Below, piece by piece: positions 7,611-47,294 of a stretch of 64,000 nucleotides of DNA. This DNA comes from Pseudofrankia saprophytica (lineage in GTDB: Bacteria > Actinomycetota > Actinomycetes > Frankiales > Frankiaceae). A program made the position numbers and the translations under genes. The stretch is taken from the NCBI RefSeq assembly GCF_000235425.2, contig NZ_KI912266.1, positions 4,109,293-4,173,292 on the forward strand, written 5' to 3'. Under the pieces are notes generated by a model. The model saw nothing but the letters and a program-made list of their open reading frames with translations, had not been told where the DNA came from and did not search any database. Each line of letters opens with the position of its first letter. The first letter of the stretch is position 1.

Positions 7611-7733
7611 GTGCTCGCCGGGAGCACGGACCTGGACGAGAGCGCCTACTCGCGGCTGACGGGCATCGAACCGGGGGACGTGGACCTGCTCATCACCCAC
7701 GACGGCCCGTACGGAATGTCGCGCGACCTCTGA
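7611..7733 (+). pseudogene. Metallophosphoesterase fragment (paralogue of the gene at 31525)
   Basis: Translated from 7611, 40 codons encode STDLDESAYSRL and then VDLLITHDGPYGMSRDL before a stop. The intact phosphoesterase at 31525-32403 reads MDLDETAYGRL and VDLLVTHDGPYGMSRNY in the same order and spacing, so this is a remnant of a related gene. The metal-binding N-terminal motifs (GDxHG, GNHE) and the C-terminal GHxH are missing, so it cannot be active. It sits in the gap between the response regulator and the end of the RiPP operon, a likely place for past rearrangement. Confidence 0.7.
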
Positions 7734-7794
7734 CGGCCTTCGGCCCGTTCCACGGCGAAGGCCGAGAACGTCCGGCATGACGTCGGCGGCGTGG

Positions 7795-7826
7795 CGGGCC
7801 GGGCCCTGATAGGAATTGCCGGCCCG
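7795..7826 (-). terminator. Hairpin after the last minus-strand gene of the RiPP region
   Basis: An 8-bp perfect inverted repeat, cgggccgg (7795-7802) with ccggcccg (7819-7826), lies 12 nt beyond the stop of the luciferase-like gene. It would end transcription of the minus-strand operon. The loop is long (16 nt) and there is no U-tract, so the call is tentative. Confidence 0.35.
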
Positions 7827-7837
7827 TCACTGCGGCT

Positions 7838-8719: not shown

Positions 8720-8818
8720 CGTTCCACTGTGAACGCTCTCGGCCGTCGGGATCAATGGTTTCCACCAGGCGACCTTCGATGCTTCGCACTCGGTTCTCCG
8801 ACGGCATGGCCTCGCCGC

Positions 8819-11290
8819 TCAGCCTCCGACCTGCGGCCGGCGGGCCGAAGCGATGTTGTCACGCAGCACGGCGAGCAGCGGATGATCTTTATCGAGCACC
8901 CTGGTCCCTTGTTCCAGAGACTTCTCGTATATCTCCATGGCTTCCGTCGGGCGGCCGGCGAGCTCGTACGCCCTACCGACGTTGCTATGTGAGGCGATCG
9001 TGTCGGGATGATCGTTTCCCAGAATCCGTCGCCGGCCGGCCAGCGTCGCCTCGAAGAGGGGGATCGCGCTGTCCAGCCGTCCGGCGGTCTGATGGACGTG
9101 GGCGAGGTTGTTCTGCGAGATCAACGTCTCAAGATGGTCCTCGCCCAGCACCCGACTATGCGCCGCCAGGGTCGCCCCGAAGATCCGGGTCGCCTCATCC
9201 AGGTGGCCCGCGGCCTGGTGGGCGGAGGCAAGGTTGTTCGACGAGCGCAATGTCTCCGGATGGTCCTCGCCGAGCACTCGCCGGCGGTCCCTCAGCACCG
9301 CGTCGAACAGCGGGAGCGACTCATCGAGGCGGCCCGCGACCTGATAGACGTGGGCGAGGTTGTTCCGCCAGCGCAGCGAGTCCGGGTGGTCCGCGCCGAG
9401 CGTCCGTTCCGCGTCGGTCAAAGTGGACTCGTAAAGTTCGATCGCCTCGTCCAGCCGGCCGATCCACGTGTATCCGTACGCCAGGCTGTTTCTCGTCGAA
9501 AGGGACACGGGGTCGTCGACGCCGAGGATCCGCTCCGCCTGAGCCAACGTGCGCTCGTAGATCCGGACCGCTTCGTGAACTCGCCTCGACTGCTGGTAGA
9601 CGATCCCGACGTGGTGCCGGGAGTCGATGGTGTCGCGGTGATCGGTGCCCAGGACCCGTGACCGGTCGGCGAGGTTCGCCTCGAACAGGCTGATGGCGTC
9701 GTCGAGCCGCCCCGACCGCCGGTACGCGTCCGCGAGGTGGTGCCGGGAGGCGAGAGTGTCGGGATGGTCGGGGCCGAGAAACGTCTCACGATCGTCCGCG
9801 GCCCGTCGCAACAGGGGAACAGCGGTCGGAACCTGGCCGTGCTCCATAAGGTAGGCCGCCGCCTGGACGCGGCACCACGAGACGTCAGCCGCGAGATGTT
9901 CCGGGGTCTCGCCGAGGTAGCCAAGCGTGGCCACGAGATGCGGCAGAATCCGCCGAGCTGGCGGCCACGAGGGCGGGTTCCGCACGAGATCCACCGGCAT
10001 CGCGTCGCGGAACAGGCCGACGAGCGTCTCCAGAAGCCGTGCCCGTAGCCCGTTGGTCATGGCCAGTCGCGTCACGGCGCCGATCAGCCGGTGCACGGCG
10101 ATCGAGCCGCCCTCCCGCCGAGCCAGGCTGTATCCGACGAGTGCGCCGACCGTGTCGGCCCACGCCACCGGGTCCTCGGCCACGTCCGCCAAGGGCGAGC
10201 CGCCGAGGCGTCCGCGAGAAGGAGAGAAAAGATCGAGAGGGATCGGCGCGGCGTCGCACAGCGCGGCCAGTTCGAGGAGTTCCACCGACGCGGGATTCTC
10301 CTTGCGCAGACGGTCCACCGATATTTCCCACAGGCCCGCGACCCGCCCTTTCGCGATCATCCGGTTAAAATATTTCTCCAGGAGCTTGAGGTACTCGGCC
10401 GGAGGTGTTCTGGTCGTGGTCAGGTATCCAGCCGCCTGTTCGACCGCCAGCGGCAGGTCACCAAGCAGCGCCACGATCCGCTCGGCCAGATCCGGCTCGA
10501 TGTCGCGGACGCGCAGTGCCAGCAGCCGAGCGGCGTCCGATCGGGCCAGCGTCGGAACCGTCAGCGCGACGCCGAGTGCGTCCATTCCGGTTCTGCGCGA
10601 GGTCAGCAGGACCTGACCGCCTCCGGATGGGCGAAACCTCGCGACCGCGTCGAGGTCCTCGACGTTGTCGAAGATCACCAGCCACGACTGGCGGCGGGAC
10701 AGCACCGACCAGACGGACGCGGCGTCGGAGTCCGGCGTGAGACCGAGCGGTGCAGCCAGCGCGGAGATGTTGGTGGCGACCGCGTCGGCCTGGTCGGCGG
10801 CGACCCACCACACGACCTCGAACTCGGACTGGTACCGGTAGGCGTACCTGATGGCTAGCGCCGTCTTGCCGACGCCGCCCATCCCCTCGAGGGCCACCAG
10901 CGCGACCAGATTCGACGCACGCAGCGACTCGTGGACGGCGGCGAGCAGTGAGTCCCGCCCGACGAGCCGGACCGGGCACGGCGGCACGTTCCACACCAGG
11001 GGCCAGTCGCGCGGCCCGTTCTTGCCCGAGCGGGCACAGAACACGGAGTTGTCCGGGAAGTCGCTGCACGCGGCCGCCAGCAGGCGGGTCGGGCCGTCGG
11101 CCAGGATCCCGTTGGCGAACAGCTCGGAGACCGCGGACCAGAACTGCCAGCCACTAGTTGCAGACCACGCCGGGTGCAGCCCCGGCGAGAGGCCCGCCTT
11201 GGTGAGCAGGAGGCAGGCTGACTCCCGATCCGGGAACGCGTCGGCCAGCGCTTTGATCTGGTCGTCGCACAGCCGGTCGAGGTCGGTCAT
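8819..11290 (-). CDS. NB-ARC/TPR protein, FxsT-like (FxSxx-COOH system TPR protein)
   Basis: This 823-aa protein has three parts. Residues 1-75 form a small helical domain (LADAFPDRESACLLLTKAGL) that resembles an effector-associated domain of bacterial conflict proteins. Residues 105-400 form an NB-ARC STAND ATPase with P-loop GMGGVGKT at 136-143, Walker B LVIFDNVED and GxP-type GDLPLAVEQAAGYL. From about residue 490 there are at least seven 42-residue kinesin-light-chain-type TPRs (LGxDHPDTL...A..Y...GR.DEAI.L). FxSxx-COOH peptide loci typically encode such a protein. Its role there is unknown; scaffolding or signalling is possible. The ATG at 11290 lies 8 nt beyond the preceding stop. Confidence 0.85.
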   Translation of the reverse strand: MTDLDRLCDDQIKALADAFPDRESACLLLTKAGLSPGLHPAWSATSGWQFWSAVSELFANGILADGPTRLLAAACSDFPDNSVFCARSGKNGPRDWPLVWNVPPCPVRLVGRDSLLAAVHESLRASNLVALVALEGMGGVGKTALAIRYAYRYQSEFEVVWWVAADQADAVATNISALAAPLGLTPDSDAASVWSVLSRRQSWLVIFDNVEDLDAVARFRPSGGGQVLLTSRRTGMDALGVALTVPTLARSDAARLLALRVRDIEPDLAERIVALLGDLPLAVEQAAGYLTTTRTPPAEYLKLLEKYFNRMIAKGRVAGLWEISVDRLRKENPASVELLELAALCDAAPIPLDLFSPSRGRLGGSPLADVAEDPVAWADTVGALVGYSLARREGGSIAVHRLIGAVTRLAMTNGLRARLLETLVGLFRDAMPVDLVRNPPSWPPARRILPHLVATLGYLGETPEHLAADVSWCRVQAAAYLMEHGQVPTAVPLLRRAADDRETFLGPDHPDTLASRHHLADAYRRSGRLDDAISLFEANLADRSRVLGTDHRDTIDSRHHVGIVYQQSRRVHEAVRIYERTLAQAERILGVDDPVSLSTRNSLAYGYTWIGRLDEAIELYESTLTDAERTLGADHPDSLRWRNNLAHVYQVAGRLDESLPLFDAVLRDRRRVLGEDHPETLRSSNNLASAHQAAGHLDEATRIFGATLAAHSRVLGEDHLETLISQNNLAHVHQTAGRLDSAIPLFEATLAGRRRILGNDHPDTIASHSNVGRAYELAGRPTEAMEIYEKSLEQGTRVLDKDHPLLAVLRDNIASARRPQVGG

Positions 11291-11298
11291 GGCAGGCG

Positions 11299-11943
11299 TC
11301 AGACCGGCGGGCTGGTGATGGCCGCGTCGACCGGCCATGACCGCGCGTCGAGCTCGGACTGAAGCTGTTCCGTGATGGACCGTAGTGCCGCGAAGTAGCT
11401 CGGCCAGGGCGCACGGCGCGCGCGGGCGAAGAACCAGGAGACCACCTCGCGCGTGTCGAGTTCGGTCTCGAGCCGGTGCTCGACGACACTGATCCGGACG
11501 GGTTCGCTCCGATGCACCTGGTTCACTGCCCGGCTCAGGTCGCTCAGCAACGCGACGATAGCCTGTCGCTCGGCACCGTCGCGTGGATAGAGGCCGATAT
11601 GGCGCTCGACCGGCGCCAGGACCGTCTCAGGGTAGCTGTGACCTTCGCAGCTCGTGTACGTGATGTAACCCAGCCGCTCGGCGAGGATTACCACCAGCGG
11701 CCGGATACCCGGTTCGAGCGCGGCACGGAACTTCGGGTGCCACCGCGACAGCGCGTGCCCGCGATAGTTTCCCAGCTCGCCGGTCTCGCTTATGTTGCCG
11801 AACCGGCTTTCCTGGAGCGAGACCGCCTCCAGGTTGCGTGGATGCCCGGGCTCCTCCCAGCTGGCCAGAAAGTCCTGAAATCCCGCCATCCGGTTCGTGT
11901 TGAAGAGCGCGCGGCCTCCGCGGCGCCATCTGGCGGTGTGCAT
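11299..11943 (-). CDS. Hypothetical protein with TSCEGH motif
   Basis: This is a 214-aa soluble protein I do not recognise. It begins MHTARWRRGGRALFN. A central segment reads ILAERLGYITYTSCEGHSYP; a strand ending in SCxGH is seen in several small uncharacterised families and could bind metal. The C-terminal half is helical (AIVALLSDLSRAVNQVHR, SYFAALRSITEQLQSELDA). No signal peptide or membrane segment is present. ATG at 11943 shares one base with the DinB-like stop (TGATG), so it is translationally coupled, which places it firmly in the RiPP operon. The ORF can be extended upstream to 12066, but that would overlap the DinB gene. Confidence 0.75.
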   Translation of the reverse strand: MHTARWRRGGRALFNTNRMAGFQDFLASWEEPGHPRNLEAVSLQESRFGNISETGELGNYRGHALSRWHPKFRAALEPGIRPLVVILAERLGYITYTSCEGHSYPETVLAPVERHIGLYPRDGAERQAIVALLSDLSRAVNQVHRSEPVRISVVEHRLETELDTREVVSWFFARARRAPWPSYFAALRSITEQLQSELDARSWPVDAAITSPPV

Positions 11944-12452
11944 CAGTGCTCCGCGAGTACCACTCGGACGTCGGCCGCGTGCTCTTCGAAATGAGCGCGG
12001 ACGACACCATAGGTCGATTCGACGGTTTCCCGGCCACGGAAGTTCTGGACTCCTCTGTTTCCCCATTCTTCAGCCTGCACGGTCGACAGGATCGAGGCGA
12101 GTCGGTGGTGTCCGCGGTCGAACTTTCGGCGGATTGAAGCGCCGTCGGCCCGACGTGCCCCCCACACGGTCATGACGTTGTTTATCCGGTTTCCCACCGT
12201 GACTGGGGGTGTGAAACTGAGGCTCCTGCGTGCTCCGCCCAAGCCAGACGCGAACAGCTCCTGACCCATGGCCAGGTGGTACATGATCTGACGAACGGTC
12301 CATTCCGAGCCGGGTGGCCGACGCTCCCAGTCCTTCTCTCGGATCGTCGCGACGAGTTCGTGGAAGTCCGCCCGCACGGAGTTCAGCTCAGCCATGAGCC
12401 GCGCCTGGGTCTCGCCGCTCGGCGTCGGTTGCGCGGCTTGGTCAGGGAACAC
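11943..12452 (-). CDS. DinB/YfiT-like metal-binding protein
   Basis: This 169-aa four-helix-bundle protein belongs to the DinB superfamily. Helix 1 is RLMAELNSVRADFHELV. GSEWTVRQIMYHLAMGQELF carries the first metal-ligand His (the WTVxxxxxHL pattern is characteristic), DRGHHRL is in the middle, and RAHFEEHAADV near the C-terminus supplies further His. DinB-like proteins include thiol-dependent S-transferases and proteins of unknown activity; some act in peptide or antibiotic pathways. Start GTG at 12452 has AAGGAG about 7 nt upstream and follows the carbamoyltransferase stop by 16 nt. Its role in the pathway is unknown. Confidence 0.75.
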   Translation of the reverse strand: MFPDQAAQPTPSGETQARLMAELNSVRADFHELVATIREKDWERRPPGSEWTVRQIMYHLAMGQELFASGLGGARRSLSFTPPVTVGNRINNVMTVWGARRADGASIRRKFDRGHHRLASILSTVQAEEWGNRGVQNFRGRETVESTYGVVRAHFEEHAADVRVVLAEH

Positions 12453-12468
12453 GTTCTGCTCCTTATGG

Positions 12469-14145
12469 TCATGTGCGTCCGGTGAGGGCGCTCCTCTTCT
12501 GGATGACGAGTCCTTCGACGACCAGCGCGTCCAGCGCGCTGGACGCGAAGCTGCGGATCGCGTCGCCGACGTTGTTCACAATCGACTCGCCGGACAGGTT
12601 GAAGGACGTGTTGAGGAGTGCCCCACGCCCGGTGCGCTCCTCGACGGCCTCCAACAGATGGTGGAAACGGGGATTCATCCGGTGCGACACGACCTGTGCC
12701 CGCGTGGTGCCGTCGACATGAACCGCCGCGGGTATCGCTTCCCGGGCGACGTCGGTCGTGGGGAGTGCAAGCAGCATGTAGGGCGAGTTCGTACGTCCGA
12801 TGAGCTCGGGCGCGCCGCGGTCGAGAATCGCCGGAGCGAGCGGACGCCAACTCTCCCGGCCCTTGAGGGCGTTCACTCGGTCTCGCATGCCAATACTGGC
12901 AGGCAAGGCGAGAATTGATCGATTACCCAACGCGCGCGGGCCGATCTCACCGCGGCCCTGCATCCAACCTATCACCTGGCCTTGGGCCAGCAAGTCGGCG
13001 GTATAGGCGAAGGGGTCGGGCGGCTCGGTGAATGGCAGACGCAGTTCACGCAGCCGGTCCGCGACCAGAGTCTGGTCGACGGCCGGTCCGTGATATGGGT
13101 GTTCCAGCGGCTCGACATCGGTTCCGGCGGCCGCGGTCAGCCACATGGCCGCGCCGAGCGCGCCGCCGCCATCGTGCGCCGCGGGCACCACGTAAAGATC
13201 GTCAACGAGGCCGCTGAGCGCGATCGCGCCGTTGGCGCTGCAGTTGAGGCCAACCCCTCCGGCGATGACCAGACGCCGCGTGTCGTAGCGGGTGGTCGCG
13301 ACGCGGGCGAGGTGCAGCATCACGAAGGTCAGGCGTGTCTGCGCACTGGCCGCGATATCGGCCTGATGCGGTGAGAACGCTGGCTGCCGGCGGGGGAGCC
13401 CTGCTCCGACGTCCCAGAAGTGGCGAGGTGGTCTGGGCGGCCCGAAACGGTCCTCCAGCCAGCGGAACCAGTGCGATGTCAGGGTCGAGAAACGCTCACC
13501 GGCGTCCAGGCCATCGACATTGGGCAGGTCCACCCGGTAGCCGTCCGGCTCCACCTGGATGGGTTCGACCGGATCGTTCGCCCTGCCGTATGCCGCGAGC
13601 CCCATTGTCTTCCCCTCGGCGTGGCCGCCGAGACCCAAATAGCTCGTGACACAGGTGTAGAACTGGCCAAGCGAGTGGCCTATCCCGAAACGTTGGTCAA
13701 GCCGCAGAGAACCTCCATGCCCGTAGCCGATGCTGGTCGAGACGTCCTCGCCGTTGCCGTCGACGACGACGACGGCGGCTTCGGGAAGCCCTGAACCGTA
13801 GTAGGTCGAGGCGGCGTGCGCGAGGTGGTGGTCGACGTACTCGACGGGAGGTCTCGGCTCGCCACGCCACATCTCGTGGCCGAGATATCGGTCGACGAAA
13901 TGCTTAAGGTACCGGGCTGACGGATCCCGTGCCGGGTCCCACGAGGCGGCGACGTGATCCAGGTCGCCCAGCCGCACGCCTGCCTCAGCCAGGCAGAACA
14001 TGGTCGACAGCAGCGGGAGCGTGCCCGGAGCGTGCGGCGTACGAACTCCGCGTTCCTCCTCCATCATCGCGATCAGCCTGCCGTCCCGTAGCAGGCAGGC
14101 GGCCGCGTCGTGGCCGAACACCCCGCTGATTCCTAGGACCAGCAT
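12469..14145 (-). CDS. NodU/CmcH-family O-carbamoyltransferase
   Basis: This 558-aa enzyme of the NodU/CmcH/TobZ family transfers a carbamoyl group from carbamoyl phosphate, via carbamoyl-adenylate, to a hydroxyl group. The N-terminal Kae1-like domain opens MLVLGISGVFGHDAAACLL and carries MEEERGVR and the metal-binding YVDHHLAHAASTYYGSG near residues 115-130. Further family blocks are GLGGHAEGKTMGLAAYG and GGVGLNCSANG. The C-terminal Carbam_trans_C domain has GEIGPRALGNRSILA and ESWRPLAPAIL. Length is typical. ATG at 14145 overlaps the preceding radical SAM stop by 13 nt. In this operon the acceptor is probably a Ser/Thr or enzyme-installed hydroxyl of the peptide; that is inference. Confidence 0.92.
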   Translation of the reverse strand: MLVLGISGVFGHDAAACLLRDGRLIAMMEEERGVRTPHAPGTLPLLSTMFCLAEAGVRLGDLDHVAASWDPARDPSARYLKHFVDRYLGHEMWRGEPRPPVEYVDHHLAHAASTYYGSGLPEAAVVVVDGNGEDVSTSIGYGHGGSLRLDQRFGIGHSLGQFYTCVTSYLGLGGHAEGKTMGLAAYGRANDPVEPIQVEPDGYRVDLPNVDGLDAGERFSTLTSHWFRWLEDRFGPPRPPRHFWDVGAGLPRRQPAFSPHQADIAASAQTRLTFVMLHLARVATTRYDTRRLVIAGGVGLNCSANGAIALSGLVDDLYVVPAAHDGGGALGAAMWLTAAAGTDVEPLEHPYHGPAVDQTLVADRLRELRLPFTEPPDPFAYTADLLAQGQVIGWMQGRGEIGPRALGNRSILALPASIGMRDRVNALKGRESWRPLAPAILDRGAPELIGRTNSPYMLLALPTTDVAREAIPAAVHVDGTTRAQVVSHRMNPRFHHLLEAVEERTGRGALLNTSFNLSGESIVNNVGDAIRSFASSALDALVVEGLVIQKRSALTGRT

Positions 14146-16343
14146 GTCAGGCCTTTTCCCGTGTCCTGGCGCTCGGTGCGCGTCACGTCGACGAACCCAG
14201 CCGACACCAGGGCTGTCAGTCCGCGCAGGACCGCCGGCTCGACCTCCCGCTCGTCCATCCCGAACCTGCTGGCCACCACGCCGATGAGGACGGCCACCCG
14301 ATCCGAATCCAGAGACTCGAGCGCTCCCGCGAGGAGGGCGTCAACCTGGACGAAGCCGTCGCGACCGGCCTGACTGACGAGCAGGCAGGCTCGCGACCGG
14401 GCCTCGACCTCTCCTCGTGCGATGCCCGCCACGTCCCAGGAGGCTCCAAGCCAGGCAGCGGGGTGGCGCCAGGACAGTCGATCGTCCCGTTCGAGGACGC
14501 TGGTGCCTGCGCTGGTGTCGGTGTCGGCGCGTGGCTCGGCCCGCGGGGTCCGGGCCCGCCAGGAGCCGGCGCCATGCCGCTCGCGGAACAGGGAGACGTG
14601 CGCCACGTGCGCCAGGGGCATCTCCAGCGTCTCGTCCAGCCGGGACTTCGAGGCGACGTATGCCCGACCTCGTTCTTCGGATGGACGGTCCGAACGGTGC
14701 TCGAAGCTGTGCCGGAATATCTCGCCTTGCCCGTCGTGGACGGTGACGCCGAAGTCGGCGGAGCGCTCGAACACCGGGGTGCCGTCGAACAGGACGAAGT
14801 CGGTGTAGGTCACCGCGTCGATCGCAGCGGAATGTTGTTCGAGAAAACGGGCCGTGGCCTGCGCCTCGGTCGACGTCTCGGTGGGGAAGCCGTGTATCAC
14901 GAGTGCATGTACGCCGATTCCCGCCCGGGCGCAGTCCGCGATGACGCGTTCGACGGTGTCCAGTCTGGTTCCCTTGTCCATCAGGTCGAGCACACGCTGG
15001 CTCGCGCTTTCGAGGCCGAACCAGATCTGTACGCAGCCGGCCCTGGCCATAAGGTCGAGAAGCTCGCGTGTGAAGGCCGGCTCGAACCGGGCTCGGCAGA
15101 GCCACCGAAACCGCTCGCCGCGCCGCAGGATCTCCGTGCTCAGGCTCCGCGCGTGTGCTGGCGAAAACAGCATGTCCCGGAAGTGGAACCAGCGCGCTCC
15201 GTGCCTCCTCCGGAGTTCCTGAAGATCATCGACGACGCGCGCCGTCGCGCGGCCGCGGAAGCTCAGGTGGTTCGTGGTGATCGCGCAGAAGGTGCACTTG
15301 CCCCAATAACAGCCACGGGAGGTGAGAAGGGAGATGACCGGCTCGGGGAAGAGATACCGATTCAGCTCGAGGTCCCGGTAGTCGGGGGTCGGGAGGCTGT
15401 CGAGGTCGGTGACATCGAATCTGGTGGGAGCGGCCAGGTGCTCGTCGCGGTATGTGGCGACATTGGCTGGTCTCTCGTCGATGTCGCGTCGTGACCGTGC
15501 GAGCCGCGTCACCTGGTCGAGCGCGGCCTCCGAGTCGTGGTAGATGACGCTGTCGACCAGCTCGAACAACCGAGGATAGTCCGGGTGTCGCTCGTGCCTG
15601 AGATAGCGTGCAAAAGTGACCTGGTCCTCCAGGTTTCCCAGGACCGTGACGTGACCGTCGAAGCCGGCGGAGCGCAGCGCGACCAGGAGCGTGACCAGCG
15701 GGATCATCTGGTCCGGGTGGACGTACACCATCGCGATGCACGTGGGCCGGCACGAAACGATCTCGGGCAGCGCGGCGGAGGCGACATAGTCGACGTAGGG
15801 ATTGGTGCCCGCGTCGGTAGCGGCCGCGATGCACTCGTCGAGCGAGGTCTGGTCGTGAGCCGGGCGGAAACGCTGAAGCCCGATCTCGGTGGGAGCGTGC
15901 GCGAGCGAGATCAGGTCCCATGCCCGGTTCATCGTCCGGACAGCGCGGCGATGCCTGGCGATGTCGTAGAAGGCGTCCGAGCGTATGCAGTCCAACGCGT
16001 CGGCTATACCGGAGAGAGTGTGCTCGCCGGACGCCAGCGCGTCGGCGAGAGCAAGCACACGCCGTCGCTGAGGCGCCGCCAGGTTTGGCCTCGCTCCCAG
16101 GTCCGCCCACTCGAGCAGGAGCCGTTCCCGCGTTCTTCTCAGGTACGGAACTGACAGGAAGTAGAGGGTTGAGCCGAGGTTGAGATCGTACGCCCGGGTC
16201 CGCAGGCCCCGCGCCCGCATCGACGCGGTCAGGCTCGCCAGCTCGTGTGGCGCATGGGGGTAGTACCAGTGCGGAGGGAAGATGACGGCCAGGTCCGCGG
16301 CATCGTGTGCCGGCGGCCTGCATGTCGCTGCCTCAGGTGTCAC
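14133..16343 (-). CDS. B12-binding-type radical SAM protein with CX4CX2C motif
   Basis: This is a 736-aa enzyme. The first 330 residues hold a Rossmann-like B12-binding-type region (LAVIFPPHWYYPHAPHELASLTASMRARG), though I see no clear DxHxxG motif. The radical SAM core follows. Its cluster motif is TSRGCYWGKCTFC with cysteines at 345, 350 and 353 (CX4CX2C, not the canonical CX3CX2C). Later elements are typical of cobalamin/Elp3-like radical SAMs: WLCRARFEPAF, CVQIWFGLESASQRVLDLMDKG and ALVIHGFPTET. C-methylation of the peptide is the usual role of such enzymes, but this is inference. GTG at 16343 has GGAG 8 nt upstream. Confidence 0.85.
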   Translation of the reverse strand: MTPEAATCRPPAHDAADLAVIFPPHWYYPHAPHELASLTASMRARGLRTRAYDLNLGSTLYFLSVPYLRRTRERLLLEWADLGARPNLAAPQRRRVLALADALASGEHTLSGIADALDCIRSDAFYDIARHRRAVRTMNRAWDLISLAHAPTEIGLQRFRPAHDQTSLDECIAAATDAGTNPYVDYVASAALPEIVSCRPTCIAMVYVHPDQMIPLVTLLVALRSAGFDGHVTVLGNLEDQVTFARYLRHERHPDYPRLFELVDSVIYHDSEAALDQVTRLARSRRDIDERPANVATYRDEHLAAPTRFDVTDLDSLPTPDYRDLELNRYLFPEPVISLLTSRGCYWGKCTFCAITTNHLSFRGRATARVVDDLQELRRRHGARWFHFRDMLFSPAHARSLSTEILRRGERFRWLCRARFEPAFTRELLDLMARAGCVQIWFGLESASQRVLDLMDKGTRLDTVERVIADCARAGIGVHALVIHGFPTETSTEAQATARFLEQHSAAIDAVTYTDFVLFDGTPVFERSADFGVTVHDGQGEIFRHSFEHRSDRPSEERGRAYVASKSRLDETLEMPLAHVAHVSLFRERHGAGSWRARTPRAEPRADTDTSAGTSVLERDDRLSWRHPAAWLGASWDVAGIARGEVEARSRACLLVSQAGRDGFVQVDALLAGALESLDSDRVAVLIGVVASRFGMDEREVEPAVLRGLTALVSAGFVDVTRTERQDTGKGLTCWS

Positions 16344-16442
16344 CAGAAATGCTCCGTTTCCGAGCGTGTCTGGTCGGCGACGTTCGGCCGAGATTCGGAC
16401 GGAAGGGCGGACTGACGCCTCGCGACACCACGACGGTCCTGG

Positions 16443-17438
16443 TCAGCCAGCGAAGTCGACCACGAACGGTACCTCCGGGCCGTAACGGTCGCTGACGGCT
16501 TGGTAGGTGCTGATCACAGAACTGCCCTGGTAGATCCGCACGACATCCCCCTCGATCTCGACACCGTCACCCGAGCTCAGGTCCGCCCCCAGGCGCTTGT
16601 TAGGACGATTGCTGGGAACGGCGCGCGCTGCACTGTAGTTGACGCGACCCGCAGGGGTGACCGTGCCGTCGAGCCGGAAGGCGTCCCACTCGGACAGAAC
16701 GACATACGGACGACGTAGCTGTTCGTCGACATAGGCGGCGAGATCAGGGCACACCTCGATGACCGCGTCTCGCACCGCCCGTGCCCGTTCCAGGCTCGCG
16801 GGACAGTCGAAGGAACACGGCAGGTGCACGGAATAGCTTAGACCGCTGTGTTTGAGGAGGCTGTTGCAGAGGTAGGACGCCGATTTCGTGCGGCGGAACG
16901 CCTGGTAGAGATTGTTGTCGTGGTTCCAATCATTGTGTCGGGCGAAGAAGCGTCGGCAGCACTCGGGGTACCCCAGATGGTGCCCGAAGTGAAAATGGTC
17001 GATCCACGGCTTGTCGACGACGCGGCCGTCGATCGCCAACGGGTACCAGCCATGGGCCACGGCCGCGTCGAGCCCACGCTGGTCGCGGGCGAGGAACACG
17101 TGGGCTGCACCGGTCGGGGCATGCCAGGGCGGATATCCGCGCGCCCGCGTGGTGTTCAGCTGGCTGCCACCGATGATCTCGTCCGTCTCCGCCGGATCAG
17201 CGATGAACCCGAAATAAGCGTTCACCACGGCGAACAGGCCCAGTCTCCGGGCGAAGGCCATGAACGTGTCCAGATCGCGCGCGTCGACCCAGTCGTCCAG
17301 TACAGGCTTGGCGCCGGCCAGCAACGCGACGAAGGCAACAAGCTGACCGGGTCCCCGCCGCAGCGAGACATACTCGCGCAGGGGATCCGGAAGCGGAACG
17401 GGCGACAGGGCGTCGGGTGCCGAGGGAAGGCCGTTCAT
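16443..17438 (-). CDS. DUF483-like protein with GYPECC motif
   Basis: This 331-aa protein has no assigned function. Its centre is rich in His and Cys: WIDHFHFGHHLGYPECCRRFF followed by NDWNHDNNLY and then LPCSFDCPAS. GYPxCC is reminiscent of the DUF483 family and suggests a metal or Fe-S site. The N-terminal part is helical (LDTFMAFARRLGLFAVVNAYFGF), and the C-terminus is beta-rich (GDVVRIYQGSSVISTY). ATG at 17438 overlaps the HExxH gene stop by ATGA, so translation is coupled; a GTG at 17450 is the alternative. By position it is a tailoring or accessory enzyme of the peptide pathway. Confidence 0.7.
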   Translation of the reverse strand: MNGLPSAPDALSPVPLPDPLREYVSLRRGPGQLVAFVALLAGAKPVLDDWVDARDLDTFMAFARRLGLFAVVNAYFGFIADPAETDEIIGGSQLNTTRARGYPPWHAPTGAAHVFLARDQRGLDAAVAHGWYPLAIDGRVVDKPWIDHFHFGHHLGYPECCRRFFARHNDWNHDNNLYQAFRRTKSASYLCNSLLKHSGLSYSVHLPCSFDCPASLERARAVRDAVIEVCPDLAAYVDEQLRRPYVVLSEWDAFRLDGTVTPAGRVNYSAARAVPSNRPNKRLGADLSSGDGVEIEGDVVRIYQGSSVISTYQAVSDRYGPEVPFVVDFAG

Positions 17439-19465
17439 CGCGTCTCGCACCCGATCCAGCGCAGCAGGAGCAGGTACGTGGCCACGGACTCATTGCCGAG
17501 GGCGTCGTCGTCCGGGCTCCTTCGGACACCGAGCCCGGCAAGGGTCGAACGGTCCGTAACGTGCGCCGAGGTGAACGCGACGACGAGAGCCAGGTTGAAC
17601 AACGCGGTGTCGGCCTCCTCCCGGAATCCGAGGTGGCGTAGCGCAAAGGCGAGGTCACGCCAGAGGTCGACGTTGTCCGGCGCGCCGTCCAGGCAGCGTG
17701 CGTACCGCTCTGCCGCATGCGCGTACCGTCGTTCGACGTAGGCGAGGTGTCCGGTGAGAAGCCAGATCACGCCGTCCTCACCGTCGGCTTCTCGCAGGCT
17801 GCTCGCCAGCCGGGCGAACTCGGCGGGTTCGACGACGCTCAGGCGGCCGAGCAGGTCGAGCGTCGGGTCACGGCGACCCGCGTGGTCGGCCAGCCGATTG
17901 GTCGGTATGACGGTAGGCAGACCAAGCAGCTGGCACGCCTCCAGGGCTACCTTGTCGGCTGACGTCATCGGTTGGGTGGGGGCGGGCAGGCCAGCCAGGA
18001 CCAGCGAGTCCTGGAGAGCGGACGGACAGGCGCCGGAGCTTGGCCGACGCTTTCCGCCGGCATGCGCCCAGCGCTGGGCGAGCCGTCCCAGGCGGCTGTC
18101 TGTCTCGTGCCGCGGCTGATCGTGTCGTTCCAGCCACCGCGCTCTGTGCTCGAGCAGCTCGCCGCGGACCGCCCGCGCGACCTCGGGTGGCACAGTGATC
18201 TCGGGAAGATCGTCCAGACGCGTCAGCAGCTCGCCGAGAAGCGTCTTCCCGACCTCCGTGAGCTGGGCGTGCTCAAGAAGTTGGTCGACGCCGGTCCGTA
18301 CCTGCTCCCGCCGACGGGCGAACTCCCGGACGGCGCGGTCCTGGCCGGCGGCGCTGGGGTCCACCGCGGCGCACGCCGCCCAGAAGACGACGACGCTGTA
18401 GAAGGAAAACACCGCATGAAGTAGACCGTGGAGAGGCCTCGCGTCGTCCCGCCAGGGTGAATAGCACCGGGAATGCTCAGCCTGACCGACAACAAGCGGG
18501 TCAATGTCGAGAAGAGCGTTGAGCTTGTTGTGGTAGTACTCGTGCAGCAAAGCCTCGGCAAGCTGGAAAGGTGCGCCGCTCCAAGACATCTGCACCATAC
18601 CGAATGTTTCTGCCGTGGCGGCGCTGCGGTGGATGGTCGGCGACTGGCTCACCAGCGGTACCAGTACCTGGATGTACTCGCTCACCTCGGCCGCGCCGGC
18701 CGGGAGCACCCGATGCAGTAGCGCGACGGCGTCCCCTGCGGCCGACAGCCATCGGCGCGCTGCCTCGTCGGTCAGCCGCTCGAAGTCGTGCGAGGGAAAA
18801 CCGGTGCGTAGGAGCGGATCGACGTCGTTGAGCTCTAGGCGCCCCGCCAGACGTTCTAACTCGCGAACACAGACCCCTGCGGGCCGCGGGCCGGCCATCG
18901 TGTCACGGGGTGATTCGACGGAGATGGCCGGGCCGTCGGGCAGCTCCACATCGAAGCGTCCACCCGGACTGACCGAGCAGGTGACCTTCGAGCCGGCGTA
19001 CTCGCGGGGCGCCTCGACCACGATGCCCAGCCCCGGGAGGCATATTCGTCCGTCGTGGTCAAACGCCAGCGTCAGTCGGCCACCGCGATGACGCGCCGTC
19101 GCAGAAAGGGCGAACGATCCCAGTAGCCTTAGGTGCGACGCTACCTGCCCGTCAGGAAGATTCACATGGGATCGGCTGATGACGAACGTCTCCGCCAGAT
19201 CGCACCAGCGGCCAAAGGATGGATAGCCGGCGGCCAGGCTGACCTGCTCGGCCGGGCATTCCTTCAGCATCTCGTAGGCGGCAAGGAAACCCGAGCGCTC
19301 GGCGAGCTCGGGTGCGTCGGATCTCAGGCGGCGAGCGACGAACGCGAGCTGCAGTATCCGTTTCCGGACCTGCGCCCGGTACAGGCCGTTCAGGAGGTCG
19401 GAGCTGGTGCCTGGACCGACGAAGTCCCGCACCGCGCCGGAACTCAGCACTAGCTGGTCTTTCAT
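17435..19465 (-). CDS. HExxH-motif peptide modification protein (aKG-HExxH beta-hydroxylase type)
   Basis: This 676-aa protein belongs to the HEXXH motif domain family associated with FxsB-type radical SAM loci. Members studied elsewhere are 2-oxoglutarate-dependent iron enzymes that beta-hydroxylate peptide residues. The motif HEYYH is at residues 308-312, followed by CYSPWRDDARPLHGLLHAVF (residues 334-353), where R339/R343 and H346 or H350 fit the family's cofactor and third-ligand positions. The C-terminal 200 residues are helical with a TPR-like segment (AAERYARCLDGAPDNVDLWRDLAFALRHLGF). In some relatives this domain is fused to the radical SAM enzyme; here it is a separate gene. ATGA overlap with the radical SAM stop. 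Confidence 0.85.
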   Translation of the reverse strand: MKDQLVLSSGAVRDFVGPGTSSDLLNGLYRAQVRKRILQLAFVARRLRSDAPELAERSGFLAAYEMLKECPAEQVSLAAGYPSFGRWCDLAETFVISRSHVNLPDGQVASHLRLLGSFALSATARHRGGRLTLAFDHDGRICLPGLGIVVEAPREYAGSKVTCSVSPGGRFDVELPDGPAISVESPRDTMAGPRPAGVCVRELERLAGRLELNDVDPLLRTGFPSHDFERLTDEAARRWLSAAGDAVALLHRVLPAGAAEVSEYIQVLVPLVSQSPTIHRSAATAETFGMVQMSWSGAPFQLAEALLHEYYHNKLNALLDIDPLVVGQAEHSRCYSPWRDDARPLHGLLHAVFSFYSVVVFWAACAAVDPSAAGQDRAVREFARRREQVRTGVDQLLEHAQLTEVGKTLLGELLTRLDDLPEITVPPEVARAVRGELLEHRARWLERHDQPRHETDSRLGRLAQRWAHAGGKRRPSSGACPSALQDSLVLAGLPAPTQPMTSADKVALEACQLLGLPTVIPTNRLADHAGRRDPTLDLLGRLSVVEPAEFARLASSLREADGEDGVIWLLTGHLAYVERRYAHAAERYARCLDGAPDNVDLWRDLAFALRHLGFREEADTALFNLALVVAFTSAHVTDRSTLAGLGVRRSPDDDALGNESVATYLLLLRWIGCETR

Positions 19466-20730
19466 GCACCGATAATTTCGTGCCGCGGGTTCGCCGTTCT
19501 CAACACGCCGACATCGACTCGCATACGCCCGGCGATGTGGAGTATCAGCTTCAGCAGGTCGGCACAGTACACCGAGGGGTTCCGGAAACCGGACTCCGCT
19601 CGGAACCTGTGCGGATAGTAGCCTCCTCCGCAGACATCGCGGACCTCGCAGGCCAGGCAGGTGTGATGGAGTGCATCGACACCGACCTGGCGAGCGATCA
19701 CGGACGGGTGACGCAGTGCGTCGTCGAACGAGTGGGTGAAGACGTTCATAGCCAGTGAAGGAGCCCCGTCGAAGACCGCCTTGAGCGAGTCGACGCCCTC
19801 AAGCTCGCCGCCCGTGTCGATCGTAATGAGTGTCACCGGGCTGAGGCCAATCGACTCGAATCCGGTCGTCCCGCCCAGGATGAGATGCATGATCTCCTGG
19901 AAGATTCTGATCTGTGTCGGAGGCTTCCTGCTCAGATACCAGTGGTCGAAAATCTGGATGAGCCAGTCAGCATATGGCGTCAGGGTGAGGTCCTCCTTGC
20001 CCGGCGGACGTCTGTCTGCGTCCCCCAGGCGAAAGAGGAAATCGATTCCGGGTGGGTTGAAGGACAGTAACTGGTTGTAGGTGGCAAGTGGGTCCTCTTC
20101 GATGTCTATGACGCACAGGATGGCGCCGAACACCTTCCGGTACTCCGGCTGCTCCAGCAGTCTCAGCGCGCGTTCTACATGGTTGTAGCTGGGCTGGCCG
20201 TTGCGGAACGGGCGATGGACATCGTTCGTGCGGCGCTCTCCGTCCAGGCTGATACCCAGCCGGATGTCCAGCTCCGCCAGCAGCTGGCACGTGGCCTCGT
20301 CCAGCAGCGTGCCGTTGGACTGCATCAGGAAAACGATCTCCGTGAGATCGCCCAGCGCCGCCTGCATGATGCTGACGAATCTGCGGATATAGTCCAGACC
20401 GGCCAGGAGCGGCTCGCCGCCGTGCAGCACGATGTTTATCTTCTCGAGATCGTGCGTCCGCACGTGGTCGCGAATGCGTTCCGCGAGGCGGTGGATTACC
20501 GGCTCGTCCATCAGTCTCGGCTTCTCCCGCCACGACTGGTCGGCGAGGTTGTACACGTAGCAGTAGTCGCAGTTCAGGTTGCAGCGAGTATGGATCTTGC
20601 AAAGGAACAGGCGGAACGGCTCTGGTCGCCAACCCGACGAGACGAGATCGTCGAAGTCTAGGTCCGACGGCCCGGGCCAGGAATGAGCACCGGATCCGCG
20701 GCTGACGAGAGGTAGCTGGACACGGTCCAC
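19462..20730 (-). CDS. FxsB-like radical SAM/SPASM peptide maturase
   Basis: This is a 422-aa enzyme. The radical SAM cluster motif CNLNCDYCYVY has cysteines at 50, 54 and 57 (CX3CX2C) after FRLFLCKIHTR. The SAM-binding GGEPLL segment is in NIVLHGGEPLLAGL. The SPASM-type C-terminus has HHTCLACEVRDVCGGGYYPHRF and YCADLLK. This matches the FxsB family, which joins an aromatic ring to the beta-carbon of a residue two positions on (three-residue cyclophanes). The GTG at 20730 is preferred because AAGGA is 7 nt upstream. The ORF stays open to 21075, but that stretch overlaps the precursor gene in another frame. If a non-standard start is used, the N-terminus could be up to about 40 residues longer. 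Confidence 0.85.
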   Translation of the reverse strand: MDRVQLPLVSRGSGAHSWPGPSDLDFDDLVSSGWRPEPFRLFLCKIHTRCNLNCDYCYVYNLADQSWREKPRLMDEPVIHRLAERIRDHVRTHDLEKINIVLHGGEPLLAGLDYIRRFVSIMQAALGDLTEIVFLMQSNGTLLDEATCQLLAELDIRLGISLDGERRTNDVHRPFRNGQPSYNHVERALRLLEQPEYRKVFGAILCVIDIEEDPLATYNQLLSFNPPGIDFLFRLGDADRRPPGKEDLTLTPYADWLIQIFDHWYLSRKPPTQIRIFQEIMHLILGGTTGFESIGLSPVTLITIDTGGELEGVDSLKAVFDGAPSLAMNVFTHSFDDALRHPSVIARQVGVDALHHTCLACEVRDVCGGGYYPHRFRAESGFRNPSVYCADLLKLILHIAGRMRVDVGVLRTANPRHEIIGA

Positions 20731-20855
20731 TGGCGGGTCCTTCGCGAACGCGTCGAAGAATGAAGGAACGCGGTGCTGGCGAAGGGGCGGAGTCTTTCGA
20801 AAGGTTCGCCAGAGGATAGCGGCCGGCCCGAACCCCGACCAACCTTCGAGTTCCG

Positions 20856-21056
20856 CTACCAGGTACCCTGCGAGAAGGAGCTGTTGTGGGTGGTGCTGGT
20901 GTGGGCGCTGATGCCATCCGACTTCATGCCCGACTCGCGGGACAGCCGCCGAAGCGCCTGCAGAAGCGCCGAGTCGTCCGTCGCGTCCAGCTCGGCTAGA
21001 GCGACGTCGGAGATGTCGACGAGCGGCATTTTGTCCTGCGCCTGGCTGCTTCCCAT
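20856..21056 (-). CDS. RiPP precursor peptide with FxSxx-COOH-type leader
   Basis: This is a 66-aa peptide. The leader PLVDISDVALAELDATDDSA followed by LLQALRRL matches the FxSxx-COOH leader pattern (LxDLSxxxLxxLxxLDDxxLxxALRR), the recognition helix for FxsB enzymes. The likely core is residues 45-66, KSDGISAHTSTTHNSSFSQGTW read in two parts: rich in Ser/Thr, with H52, H57, F61 and W66 as aromatic residues and no Cys. Classical members end F-x-S-x-x; this one ends F-S-Q-G-T-W, so it is a variant. It precedes the maturase by about 125 nt and follows a promoter at 21102-21130. ATG at 21056 has only a weak purine-rich site; an inner ATG (residue 10) has AGGA 4 nt upstream. Confidence 0.8.
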   Translation of the reverse strand: MGSSQAQDKMPLVDISDVALAELDATDDSALLQALRRLSRESGMKSDGISAHTSTTHNSSFSQGTW

Positions 21057-21101
21057 CGCTGCTGGCCCCGTTCATGGAAATTACGACACCGAGTGTGATG
21101 A

Positions 21102-21130
21102 AGGGTAACTCGGTGGAGAATACCCGTCAA
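21102..21130 (-). promoter_or_regulatory. Sigma-70-like promoter of the precursor/maturase operon
   Basis: On the minus strand TTGACG (21130-21125) and TACCCT (21107-21102) are separated by exactly 17 nt. Both resemble actinobacterial housekeeping promoter boxes. The predicted transcript start is near 21095, about 40 nt before the precursor ATG, giving a short leader. This separates the precursor operon from the upstream prenyltransferase. Confidence 0.6.
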
Positions 21131-21409
21131 GCTGCCTCAGGGCGTTTCTTCGGACTGGGACTCATGGCCGCCGGTACTCCCTTAGCGGCGAATAGGCGCA
21201 GGTCAAGGCCCTTCTGGGACGAAGTGTTCGGGCGTCCGCGTGGTGCCCTACGCGTAGCGCATCGAAGGATCGACGGAAGGCTGCCGTCAACTCGGCTGAC
21301 CGGCGTGCTCGGTCCCGCGCGGAATGGCCCCGGCGGATCGCCGGCCTGGAGCGGGCGACCCGCGCGACCCGTCGGTGCCGGCCTCTCGGTCCCTCTGGGG
21401 GTATTTGTA
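21131..21409. other. Intergenic region between prenyltransferase and precursor promoter
   Basis: Apart from the promoter there is no credible coding sequence between the prenyltransferase stop and the precursor start (21057-21409). ORFs here are Arg/Pro-rich shadows without ribosome sites. I see no convincing terminator hairpin, so read-through from the prenyltransferase is possible. Confidence 0.5.
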
Positions 21410-22339
21410 CTAACTCGGCAGGTATAAGATGCTTCCGCGCGCTCGGGCCGCTGGCAGCGCCCGTGCGTAGCTCTTCTCAAGCTTCGTGTAGGGAGCGGCG
21501 GCGCCAAAGGACCATGCGACGTTGACCTGGGGATCGGTACTCAACGTCGGCGACTGCTTCAAGAAGATCCGCAGTCGTTCAGGCAGGGCGGGCAGGCTGC
21601 GACCGGCCTGCGGGTCGAGGTAGGGTACGTTAAGTCCGTAGAGCGACCAGCGGTGCATGCCTGGGCTGTTCCAGCTGAAGGTCATTCCCAGGCAGGCAGC
21701 AGCCGAAAGCGCGGCAAGCATCCGCGCCTGGTCGGGCACGTCCTCGGTCGCACCGCCGGTCTCGCCGACCAGCCGGCGTAGCCAGTCCGCGGTGGCGGTA
21801 CCCGGCTCAACGACGGTGTAGACGTTCATTGTCTGATGCTGGAAGTCCGATGCGACGAAGAACGCTCGTGGCATCGCGTGACGCTCGAAGAATTCCGCGT
21901 GCGCCGGCACCGCCTCGGGGATCGTCTCCAACATGAACAGGTCTGAAATCGGCCGTAGCCCTGTGAACGTCCAGCACTTGGCCAGGCCATAGCCCGTGTC
22001 GAAATCCAGGCCCGCCCGCGCCGCGCCCGGGAGCCGCAGAAGGATCTCGCGCTGCAACATCCCGATCGGAGAGTCGCAGGACCGGAGCAGGCCGTGTCGA
22101 CGCGCGGTGTCCAGCGGGTCCTGCTCACTACTGTGGAAGAAGCGGTAGTACAGCCCGTCTCCCGCCCTGCTGGTCGTCTTGAGCTGGACGACCGAGGAAC
22201 CTATCTCCGAGTCGAAGGTCTCGATGGACCGGCGGACCTTCGACTCGTCAAATCGAGCGCCCACGGCTGTCGCCGCGTCGCGGAGGTCGAGGATGAAGCG
22301 GGCGGAATCGTGGGGGGCTCGATCGATGTCTTCGGCCAC
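21410..22339 (-). CDS. ABBA-type aromatic prenyltransferase (CloQ/NovQ/NphB-like)
   Basis: This 309-aa soluble prenyltransferase resembles the CloQ/NovQ/NphB group, which attach dimethylallyl or longer prenyl groups to aromatic rings without metal. Landmarks that align with CloQ are ARFILDLRDAATAVGA near the N-terminus, KTTSRAGDGLYYRFF, FDTGYGLAKCWTFTGLRP, HQTMNVY and NVAWSFGAAAPYTKLEKSY. GTG at 22339 gives 11 residues before the first conserved helix, exactly as in CloQ, and has GGAGG just upstream. An ATG at 22429 and an ORF extending to 22942 are less likely. It lies on the same strand as the RiPP operon, 350 nt upstream of the precursor; W66 or another aromatic of the peptide is a possible acceptor. 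Confidence 0.85.
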   Translation of the reverse strand: MAEDIDRAPHDSARFILDLRDAATAVGARFDESKVRRSIETFDSEIGSSVVQLKTTSRAGDGLYYRFFHSSEQDPLDTARRHGLLRSCDSPIGMLQREILLRLPGAARAGLDFDTGYGLAKCWTFTGLRPISDLFMLETIPEAVPAHAEFFERHAMPRAFFVASDFQHQTMNVYTVVEPGTATADWLRRLVGETGGATEDVPDQARMLAALSAAACLGMTFSWNSPGMHRWSLYGLNVPYLDPQAGRSLPALPERLRIFLKQSPTLSTDPQVNVAWSFGAAAPYTKLEKSYARALPAARARGSILYLPS

Positions 22340-22563
22340 CAGTCCTCCAGCGAACCTGTCGGTGTGATGGCAAAGGTAGCCGTGATCGTCACCGTCTACC
22401 CGCCAATTCACCCGGGTCGGGCACGACATCCCGGATGCCGCGCGCCCAAGACGCCTTCGTCGACGCGGCCAGGGCGAACGGGTGACGCTCGGTGTGCCCG
22501 TGCCACCCGTCCGGCCGTTGCCGGCAGGGCCCCGGGCGGCGTCGACCGCCCGTGGTTCACCGT

Positions 22564-28460: not shown

Positions 28461-28476
28461 GGGCACACCTTTCTAG

Positions 28477-47039: not shown

Positions 47040-47181
47040 CGTCGCGGCCTTCCCACCGATTGACCACTGGGAGGTCTGACACTGTCGGCCCCGTTCGGCA
47101 ATGCCGCCCCTCCGGCAGCCCTTCACCGGGGTTCCGGGTGCCGTGGACCGGGAGCACCTCGGCGGCGAGCGGCGCGCGACG

Positions 47182-47217: not shown

Positions 47218-47294
47218 GGAGGGGACACGCCGGGCGGATCTCGTCGAGGCCCCGCCCGGCGGGCCGGTTCAGGTACTGATGTTGGACCTGTGTG

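What the first reader, a model, noticed from the sequence alone, without database searches (positions are those of the whole stretch)
8819..22339. RiPP operon combining FxsB-type crosslinking, HExxH hydroxylation, carbamoylation, a B12-type radical SAM and an aromatic prenyltransferase
The sequence shows, on one strand and mostly with overlapping or tightly spaced genes, a precursor with an FxSxx-COOH-type leader, a CX3CX2C radical SAM/SPASM enzyme, an HEYYH protein, a GYPECC protein, a CX4CX2C radical SAM enzyme, a NodU/CmcH carbamoyltransferase, a DinB-like protein, an unknown protein and an NB-ARC/TPR protein. A CloQ-like prenyltransferase lies just upstream. From family knowledge, FxsB enzymes make three-residue cyclophanes, aKG-HExxH enzymes beta-hydroxylate peptides, and CmcH-type enzymes carbamoylate hydroxyls. 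I know of no described FxsB-type locus with a carbamoyltransferase and an ABBA prenyltransferase. The product would be a new type of heavily tailored peptide. Novelty itself is inference.
Basis: partly seen in the sequence, partly recalled or inferred. Interest (0 to 1): 0.93.

Follow-up and report, generated by a model that had tools for sequence, protein, structure and literature searches.

The report
Heavily tailored cyclophane peptide gene island
A 15-kilobase gene island, absent from the matching site in two related bacteria, encodes one small peptide and enzymes predicted to cross-link, hydroxylate, methylate, carbamoylate and possibly prenylate it, and a core of this enzyme set appears to recur in other microbes, so it is likely a new subtype of a known family of modified peptides.

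Summary
In detail: ten co-directional genes (8.8-22.4 kb, minus strand) encode an FxsA-like precursor, FxsB, an aKG-HExxH protein, a DUF483-like 'GYPECC' protein, a cobalamin-type radical SAM enzyme, a TobZ-like carbamoyltransferase, a DinB-like protein, an unknown protein, an EAD1-NB-ARC-TPR protein and a CloQ-like prenyltransferase. Precursor, FxsB, HExxH and NB-ARC/TPR are the known FxS system; all 20 FxS loci fetched from this genome and relatives lack the tailoring genes. Yet homologues of carbamoyltransferase, cobalamin enzyme and DUF483-like protein share five exact contig lengths elsewhere, and GC (66.6% against 72%) plus empty sites in two relatives mark one acquired island that includes the prenyltransferase. 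New here: DUF483-like proteins accompany peptide maturases in FxS and His-Xaa-Ser systems; 17 of the 21 closest such loci also encode a TPR domain that is fused to the hydroxylase here and in a Chloroflexota MAG. The precursor lacks C-terminal FxSxx and carries HTS, HNS and a terminal Trp. Most likely: a cyclophane RiPP, beta-hydroxylated, C-methylated, O-carbamoylated and perhaps Trp-prenylated. No chemistry was tested. New variant of a known kind.

The parts
20856..21056 (-). FxsA-like precursor, 66 aa; leader MPLVDISDVALAELDATDD..., C-terminus SAHTSTTHNSSFSQGTW
   Evidence: TIGR04268 43.1 bits over cut-off 28; C-terminal FxSxx absent (read from the sequence); the genome's other match, at C1:6051929, is canonical
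19462..20730 (-). FxsB radical SAM/SPASM cyclophane maturase (start inferred at GTG 20730)
   Evidence: TIGR04269 430.3 bits over 370, scanned from 20700; start list
17435..19465 (-). aKG-HExxH peptide beta-hydroxylase with a C-terminal TPR-like domain (about residues 536-676)
   Evidence: TIGR04267 135.4 bits; similar to 22nu and ChlH 8s5f; tail shared with L014 and with stand-alone proteins near DUF483-like genes
16443..17450 (-). DUF483-like 'GYPECC' protein, 331 aa from ATG 17438 or 335 aa from GTG 17450
   Evidence: PF04467 19.8 bits, below cut-off 25; 17 hits including itself; AlphaFold model pLDDT 92.3
14133..16343 (-). cobalamin-type radical SAM enzyme, CX4CX2C, predicted C-methyltransferase
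12469..14145 (-). TobZ-like O-carbamoyltransferase
   Evidence: PF02543, PF16861; TobZ 337 bits over residues 2-548
11943..12452 (-). DinB/maleylpyruvate-isomerase-type protein
   Evidence: PF12867 46.0 bits, PF11716 43.4 bits
11299..11943 (-). protein of unknown family (start at ATG 11943 or 11889)
   Evidence: no NCBIfam, Pfam or PADLOC family at the thresholds used
8819..11338 (-). EAD1-NB-ARC-TPR (STAND) protein of the FxS system
   Evidence: NF040586 474 bits; PF19955 EAD1 56.0, NB-ARC 40.5
7838..8755 (-). F420-type LLM oxidoreductase, last gene of the island; role unknown
   Evidence: TIGR03854 386.9 bits over 295.6; GC 64.6%
21410..22411 (-). ABBA (CloQ-like) aromatic prenyltransferase, first gene of the island (start 22429, 22411 or 22339)
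   Evidence: PF11468 173.1 bits; CloQ 110.8 bits, AmbP1 94.3; GC 65.2%; starts
7616..7727 (.). left border: relic of a native gene, by its translation a metallophosphoesterase (name recalled, not scanned), whose longer copy lies in the window near 31.5-32.6 kb
   Evidence: 79% match to window 31849-31960; 79-84% to L177, L178 and L181
22408..22489 (.). right border: short stretch that looks native; it overlaps the two upstream start candidates of the prenyltransferase
   Evidence: 83.5% over 85 bases to L178
22564..26442 (-). flanking AfsR/SARP-type regulator, native to the genus, not counted as part of the island
   Evidence: NF053617 142.5 bits, far below its cut-off 1430; GC 76.3%; 81% match over most of it in G030, 3' end only in G032

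Best explanation
The island encodes a variant FxS-type RiPP pathway in which one FxsA-like peptide is predicted to be cross-linked by FxsB and then likely hydroxylated, methylated, carbamoylated and perhaps prenylated by the neighbouring enzymes. Step by step (all chemistry inferred): (1) FxsB reads the FxsA-like leader and makes a three-residue cyclophane, most simply at F-S-Q and possibly at H-T-S and H-N-S. (2) The HExxH-TPR enzyme, helped by the DUF483-like protein that would pair with its TPR domain, puts a beta-hydroxyl on a residue of the cyclised core, His being the first candidate because a characterised fused relative hydroxylates Asp and His and needs the cyclophane in place. (3) The cobalamin radical SAM enzyme C-methylates, and the TobZ-like enzyme carbamoylates a hydroxyl (the new beta-OH, or one of the many Ser/Thr). 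(4) The ABBA prenyltransferase would act on the C-terminal Trp. (5) The EAD1-NB-ARC-TPR protein probably senses a signal linked to the peptide and recruits EAD1-tagged effectors. Shown here: genes, families, island borders, shared contig lengths of three tailoring proteins, and the gene linkage and fusion that tie DUF483-like proteins, the TPR domain and the hydroxylase. Not shown: that any enzyme acts on this peptide.
For: Family scores over curated cut-offs for precursor, FxsB, HExxH and NB-ARC/TPR. Tight operon: from FxsB to the NB-ARC gene neighbouring ORFs overlap or lie at most 99 bases apart, the 99 being before the cobalamin enzyme. Recurrence by exact contig length (lists compared): carbamoyltransferase + DUF483-like at 9001, 6853, 41972, 34464; carbamoyltransferase + cobalamin enzyme at 6853, 106281, 41972; all three at 6853 and 41972. 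The coincidences fall within the best 15 of 119 listed carbamoyltransferases and best 6 of 120 listed cobalamin enzymes; 0 among the rest of these lists. The proteins of each group share at least one source label. Same order FxsB-HExxH-DUF483-like in an Anaerolineae MAG, L014; its HExxH and the window's form one side of a split supported 100/100 against 17 HExxH proteins of FxS loci, this genome's own included. The TPR tail is in 2 of 19 HExxH proteins (window, L014) and, at E 1, in 0 of the 17 others; matches to it occur in 17 of the 21 closest DUF483-like loci, L014 included. Island borders from GC and empty sites. Enzyme resemblance: TobZ, ChlH and 22nu, CloQ, OxsB/TsrM fold.
Against: No biochemical data. 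That proteins lie on one contig is inferred from equal length, not read. L014 shows no carbamoyltransferase, cobalamin enzyme or prenyltransferase relative at E 1e-5 in its 20.9 kb, so these are accessories. The prenyltransferase has no recurrence evidence and lies 353 bases from the precursor. The H-x-S motifs in the core are weak on their own: 1331 of 20000 shuffles of the last 25 residues reach two (window), 2442 of 20000 for L014. The L014 precursor is assigned mainly by place. No transporter, protease or immunity gene was recognised in the island. The cobalamin enzyme is below the curated C-methyltransferase cut-off, and AprD4, a diol dehydratase, fits its model about as well as TsrM.
Confidence: 0.62

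Rival explanations
1. Two pathways side by side: an FxS core (precursor, FxsB, HExxH, NB-ARC/TPR) and an unrelated small-molecule set (carbamoyltransferase, cobalamin enzyme, prenyltransferase, LLM) that was inserted into it and does not touch the peptide.
For: FxS loci of relatives lack the tailoring genes, 0 of 20 fetched. The nearest solved relatives of the carbamoyltransferase and prenyltransferase are TobZ, a novobiocin enzyme, GdmN and CloQ, which serve small-molecule pathways (recalled).
Against: The carbamoyltransferase and cobalamin enzyme lie between DUF483-like and NB-ARC genes in one tight operon; homologues share contig lengths with the DUF483-like protein, itself found beside peptide maturases. 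RiPP recognition elements fused to PF02543 carbamoyltransferases are reported (PMC12710340, passages).
Confidence: 0.17
2. Everything but the prenyltransferase and the LLM gene acts on the peptide; these two were merely carried in on the same DNA.
For: Prenyltransferase separated by 353 bases from the precursor; besides this genome, 2 of 197 class genomes have a relative, at 25-26% identity. The LLM family TIGR03854 is a common type (recalled).
Against: Both are low-GC like the operon (64.6 and 65.2%), co-directional, and inside the island borders; the core ends in Trp, a usual target of aromatic prenyltransferases (recalled).
Confidence: 0.4
3. The system is mainly a conflict module: the modified peptide is a ligand or effector for the EAD1-NB-ARC-TPR protein rather than a secreted product. 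This concerns role and is compatible with the main explanation.
For: EAD1 on the window protein, not reported at E 0.001 in 7 of 7 TPR proteins scanned from FxS loci of this genome and relatives (6 with an NB-ARC match, 1 with TIR); 32 EAD1 matches in this genome; EAD1 is described as a homotypic coupling domain of conflict systems, with 22 EAD1 proteins in Frankia inefficax (PMC7159879, passages); no transporter recognised in the island.
Against: No other EAD1 protein was found in the island; PADLOC gives no hit for the NB-ARC protein.
Confidence: 0.35

Closest known systems
FxS RiPP system (TIGR04268 FxsA, TIGR04269 FxsB, TIGR04267 aKG-HExxH, NF040586 TPR protein)
   Same: leader, maturase, hydroxylase family and NB-ARC/TPR partner
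   Different: no C-terminal FxSxx; HExxH apart from those of 17 FxS loci and with a TPR tail; DUF483-like, cobalamin enzyme, carbamoyltransferase, DinB, unknown protein, prenyltransferase added; EAD1 on the NB-ARC protein
ChlBH-type fused radical SAM/aKG-HExxH pathway (PMC12636437, passages)
   Same: cyclophane formation followed by aKG-HExxH beta-hydroxylation
   Different: separate genes here; many further tailoring genes
His-Xaa-Ser system (HxsA-D)
   Same: DUF483-like partner near HxsB over cut-off in L021 (428.2 of 370) and L026 (495 of 370); H-x-S motifs in the core
   Different: no island protein reaches an Hxs cut-off (FxsB scores 58.1 of 370 with HxsB)
ApyD- and BpmH-containing RiPP pathways (ApyD model; BpmH, PMC12636437 passages)
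   Same: radical SAM enzyme related to ApyD, and an aKG-HExxH protein, in RiPP pathways
   Different: ApyD score far below cut-off (104.5 of 750); no MNIO gene recognised here
Prenylated RiPPs (cyanobactins, ComX; search listing only)
   Same: prenyl transfer to a ribosomal peptide
   Different: CloQ/Orf2 family (PF11468) enzyme, next to a cyclophane maturase

Membership tests
FxS system | precursor matches TIGR04268 over cut-off | tested here: met
   43.1 of 28 bits
FxS system | precursor ends FxSxx-COOH | tested here: not met
   ends SFSQGTW; F at -6, G at -3. In relatives 15 of 28 distinct precursors end exactly so and 25 of 28 have F-x-S in the last 28 residues
FxS system | FxsB maturase over cut-off | tested here: met
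   430.3 of 370
FxS system | aKG-HExxH and FxSxx_TPR partners | tested here: met
   135.4 of 40 and 474 of 300
FxS system | cyclophane formed on the precursor | not testable with these tools
   needs co-expression and NMR or MS
His-Xaa-Ser system | HxsB, HxsC and HxsD proteins | tested here: not met
   of the 10 proteins scanned none reaches such a cut-off; FxsB scores 58.1 of 370 with HxsB
DUF483 (PF04467) | gathering score | tested here: not met
   19.8 of 25; homologues in L010 (26.9) and L014 (25.3) pass, P0005, P0007 and L023 do not
RiPP radical SAM C-methyltransferase TIGR03975 | curated cut-off | tested here: not met
   110.5 of 281.85
cobalamin-dependent radical SAM enzymes | N-terminal cobalamin-binding fold plus radical SAM barrel | tested here: inconclusive
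TobZ-type O-carbamoyltransferase | both Pfam halves and full-length similarity | tested here: met
   PF02543, PF16861; TobZ residues 8-570
ABBA aromatic prenyltransferase PF11468 | gathering score | tested here: met
   173.1 of 22
fused FxsBH (ChlBH) type | radical SAM and HExxH in one chain | tested here: not met
   separate ORFs 19462-20730 and 17435-19465

The most novel reading that the evidence does not exclude
A new RiPP subclass: carbamoylated, C-methylated, beta-hydroxylated and Trp-prenylated cyclophane peptides with hybrid F-x-S/H-x-S cores, in which a DUF483-like/TPR pair is a general accessory of the FxS and His-Xaa-Ser maturases that directs the hydroxylase to H-x-S motifs, and in which the finished peptide talks to an EAD1-NB-ARC sensor that commands the host's EAD1 effectors.
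Probability: 0.22. Interest if true: 0.88.

Novelty: new variant of a known kind. Interest (0 to 1): 0.68.

Why it matters
If true, one operon would join cyclophane formation, beta-hydroxylation, C-methylation, O-carbamoylation and prenylation on one ribosomal peptide, giving five late-stage peptide tools at once. It also gives a likely role to a DUF483-like family that Pfam lists as of unknown function: partner of radical SAM peptide maturases in bacteria and archaea, testable in either the FxS or the His-Xaa-Ser setting. Finally, it links a RiPP pathway to an EAD1-tagged NB-ARC protein, making it testable whether FxS peptides serve in bacterial conflict or cell-death circuits.

Tried and rejected

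Rows left out: of 23 genomes over the FxsA cut-off long loci were fetched for 20; G011, G018 and G026 were seen only as 3-kb loci. Three of the 20 loci are shorter than 18.3 kb (L152, L158, L161). The L014 precursor gives no NCBIfam match (scanned without its first and last residue); it is the best of 400 small ORFs of its locus with the window precursor (E 0.023) and with a local model (E 0.64), both weak, so it rests mainly on its place about 120 bases before FxsB. Precursor counts are of 28 distinct sequences at E under 1e-3 to a model built from the window precursor and found relatives; this genome's own canonical precursor, ending SGFQSSL, was not in that set and was read separately. The HExxH tree is unrooted in effect (midpoint), and L014 has a long branch and unusual composition there.
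Full report
1. What is there. The window lies at G000:C1:4109293-4173292 of a 9.98-Mb two-contig genome. On the minus strand, in transcription order, stand an ABBA prenyltransferase (21410-22411), a 66-aa FxsA-like precursor (20856-21056), FxsB (19462-20730), an aKG-HExxH protein (17435-19465), a DUF483-like 'GYPECC' protein (16443-17450), a CX4CX2C radical SAM enzyme (14133-16343), a carbamoyltransferase (12469-14145), a DinB-like protein (11943-12452), a protein of no known family (11299-11943), an EAD1-NB-ARC-TPR protein (8819-11338) and an LLM oxidoreductase (7838-8755).

2. The core is a known system. A TIGR04268 search of 117 genomes (this one and relatives) found matches in 34, over cut-off in 23. 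Twenty loci of about 12-20 kb were fetched, one of them a second FxS locus of this very genome (L150). FxsB relatives occur in 20 of 20, HExxH in 17 of 20, relatives of the NB-ARC/TPR protein in 18 of 20; the DUF483-like protein, cobalamin enzyme, carbamoyltransferase, prenyltransferase, DinB-like and unknown proteins in 0 of 20 at E 1e-4. So precursor, maturase, hydroxylase and NB-ARC protein make up a standard FxS system, and the rest is special to this island.

3. The precursor is not standard. Of 28 distinct FxsA relatives, 15 end exactly in FxSxx and 25 have F-x-S in the last 28 residues; 0 have H-x-S in the last 25. This genome's own canonical precursor ends SGFQSSL. The window precursor ends AHTSTTHNSSFSQGTW: HTS, HNS, FSQ and a terminal Trp. 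The shuffle test is weak: 1331 of 20000 shuffles of its last 25 residues also hold two H-x-S.

4. The tailoring genes recur together. The DUF483-like protein is rare: 17 hits at E 0.001, one of them the window's own, among 7998 scored candidates of a 5.8-billion-protein database. Homologues of the cobalamin enzyme (best 120 of 382 listed) and carbamoyltransferase (best 120 of 7086 listed) show the same longest-contig lengths: 9001, 6853, 41972 and 34464 for carbamoyltransferase + DUF483-like; 6853, 106281 and 41972 for carbamoyltransferase + cobalamin enzyme; 6853 and 41972 for all three. Of 119 listed carbamoyltransferases (own left out) the coincidences are at ranks 1, 2, 6, 10 and 15; of 120 listed cobalamin enzymes at ranks 1, 3 and 6; none elsewhere in these lists. 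Equal length is not proof of one contig, but five exact agreements limited to the best-scoring homologues, each with a shared source label, are hard to get by chance (inference). The set is rare in sequenced species: of 393 class genomes only this one has a match to the cobalamin enzyme at E 1e-40 or to the carbamoyltransferase at E 1e-110.

5. The island. GC is 66.6% for 7731-22589, against 72.1% before, 72.5% after 26.5 kb and 76.3% for the regulator next door; each island gene lies between 61.5 and 68.7%, the prenyltransferase at 65.2% and the LLM gene at 64.6%. In two relatives of the same genus (L177, L178) DNA matching window up to 7599 and 7582 is followed, after one inverted stretch that in the window lies at 31.5-32.6 kb, by DNA matching 22596-22748 (L177 only) and then 26541 or 26540 onward (both). 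Short stretches that look native remain at 7616-7727 and 22408-22489. The island thus runs from about 7.73 to 22.4 kb and takes in the prenyltransferase and the LLM gene. This supports joint acquisition, not joint function.

6. The DUF483-like protein. Scanning 84,980 species genomes (size as given by the tool) gave 75 loci. Of the 21 closest (L010-L030), 17, L014 included, encode within about 3 kb a protein matching the C-terminal TPR-like part of the window's HExxH protein; at first these looked like hydroxylases, but the match is to that tail. L014, an Anaerolineae MAG, has FxsB, HExxH and DUF483-like genes in the window's order; its HExxH and the window's form one side of a split supported 100/100 against 17 others, though L014 has a long branch and unusual composition. 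The tail occurs in these two HExxH proteins and, at E 1, in none of the 17. Other DUF483-like genes sit near His-Xaa-Ser maturases: HxsB over cut-off in L026 (495 of 370, with HxsD 54.4 of 50) and L021, an archaeal MAG (428.2 of 370), just below in L055 (361.9) and lower in L039 (275.9); L023 has three ORFs with 16 to 18 H-x-S each. HxsC-like proteins lie within 5 kb in 13 of the 21, with the limits that the queries came from L023 and L055, that L023 matches itself, that the two queries scanned are below the TIGR03977 cut-off, and that one query carries a TPR-like part. Of the other 54 loci most show no such neighbour at these thresholds. The small ORF before FxsB in L014 ends DFGSHGSFGSHGSSHL, mixing F-G-S and H-G-S; its kinship to FxsA is weak by score. 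In a 39-sequence alignment G155, P157, C159, C160, F164, N191, P206 and C211 are invariant and D146, H204 and C207 among the nearly invariant, which would suit a metal or cluster site (inference). The AlphaFold model is confident (pLDDT 92.3, pTM 0.90), but its only clear neighbour is an uncharacterised protein.

8. The NB-ARC protein. EAD1 scores 56.0 bits and was not reported at E 0.001 in 7 of 7 TPR proteins scanned from FxS loci (6 with an NB-ARC match, 1 with TIR); the genome has 32 EAD1 matches. PMC7159879 (passages) describes EADs as homotypic coupling domains of conflict systems and counts 22 EAD1 proteins in Frankia inefficax. A sensor role is inference.

9. Verdict. A horizontally acquired variant of the FxS RiPP system (acquisition inferred from GC and empty sites) with a tailoring triad that appears to recur, a DUF483-like/TPR accessory shared with His-Xaa-Ser systems, and a prenyltransferase of unproven membership. 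New variant of a known kind; chemistry untested.

Noticed in passing
L150 (G000:C1:6042100-6062000): The same genome holds a second FxS locus with FxsB, HExxH and NB-ARC/TPR protein and a standard precursor ending SGFQSSL.
   Followed up: partly
window 47178-54311: Tandem copies of about 1.7 kb, 80-87% alike, seen in a self-comparison.
   Followed up: no
L026:8808-9917: Next to the DUF483-like gene lies a second ORF that by eye joins TPR-like repeats to a GFPACC motif, a possible TPR-DUF483 fusion; weak matches to the DUF483-like alignment fall in a 372-aa frame there.
   Followed up: partly
L086-L115 (viral contigs): Thirty viral contigs encode short matches to the conserved DUF483-like motifs, so such a core may occur in phages.
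   Followed up: no
G000 whole genome: 32 EAD1 (PF19955) matches in one genome, one of them with a TGA inside.
   Followed up: no
P0146/P0150 and P0151/P0158: Pairs of carbamoyltransferase homologues share the contig lengths 53009 and 9761, hinting at loci with two carbamoyltransferases.
   Followed up: no
window 26542-28466: DrrB-like ABC permease and its ATPase beside the AfsR-type regulator, native to the genus by synteny; not counted with the island.
   Followed up: partly
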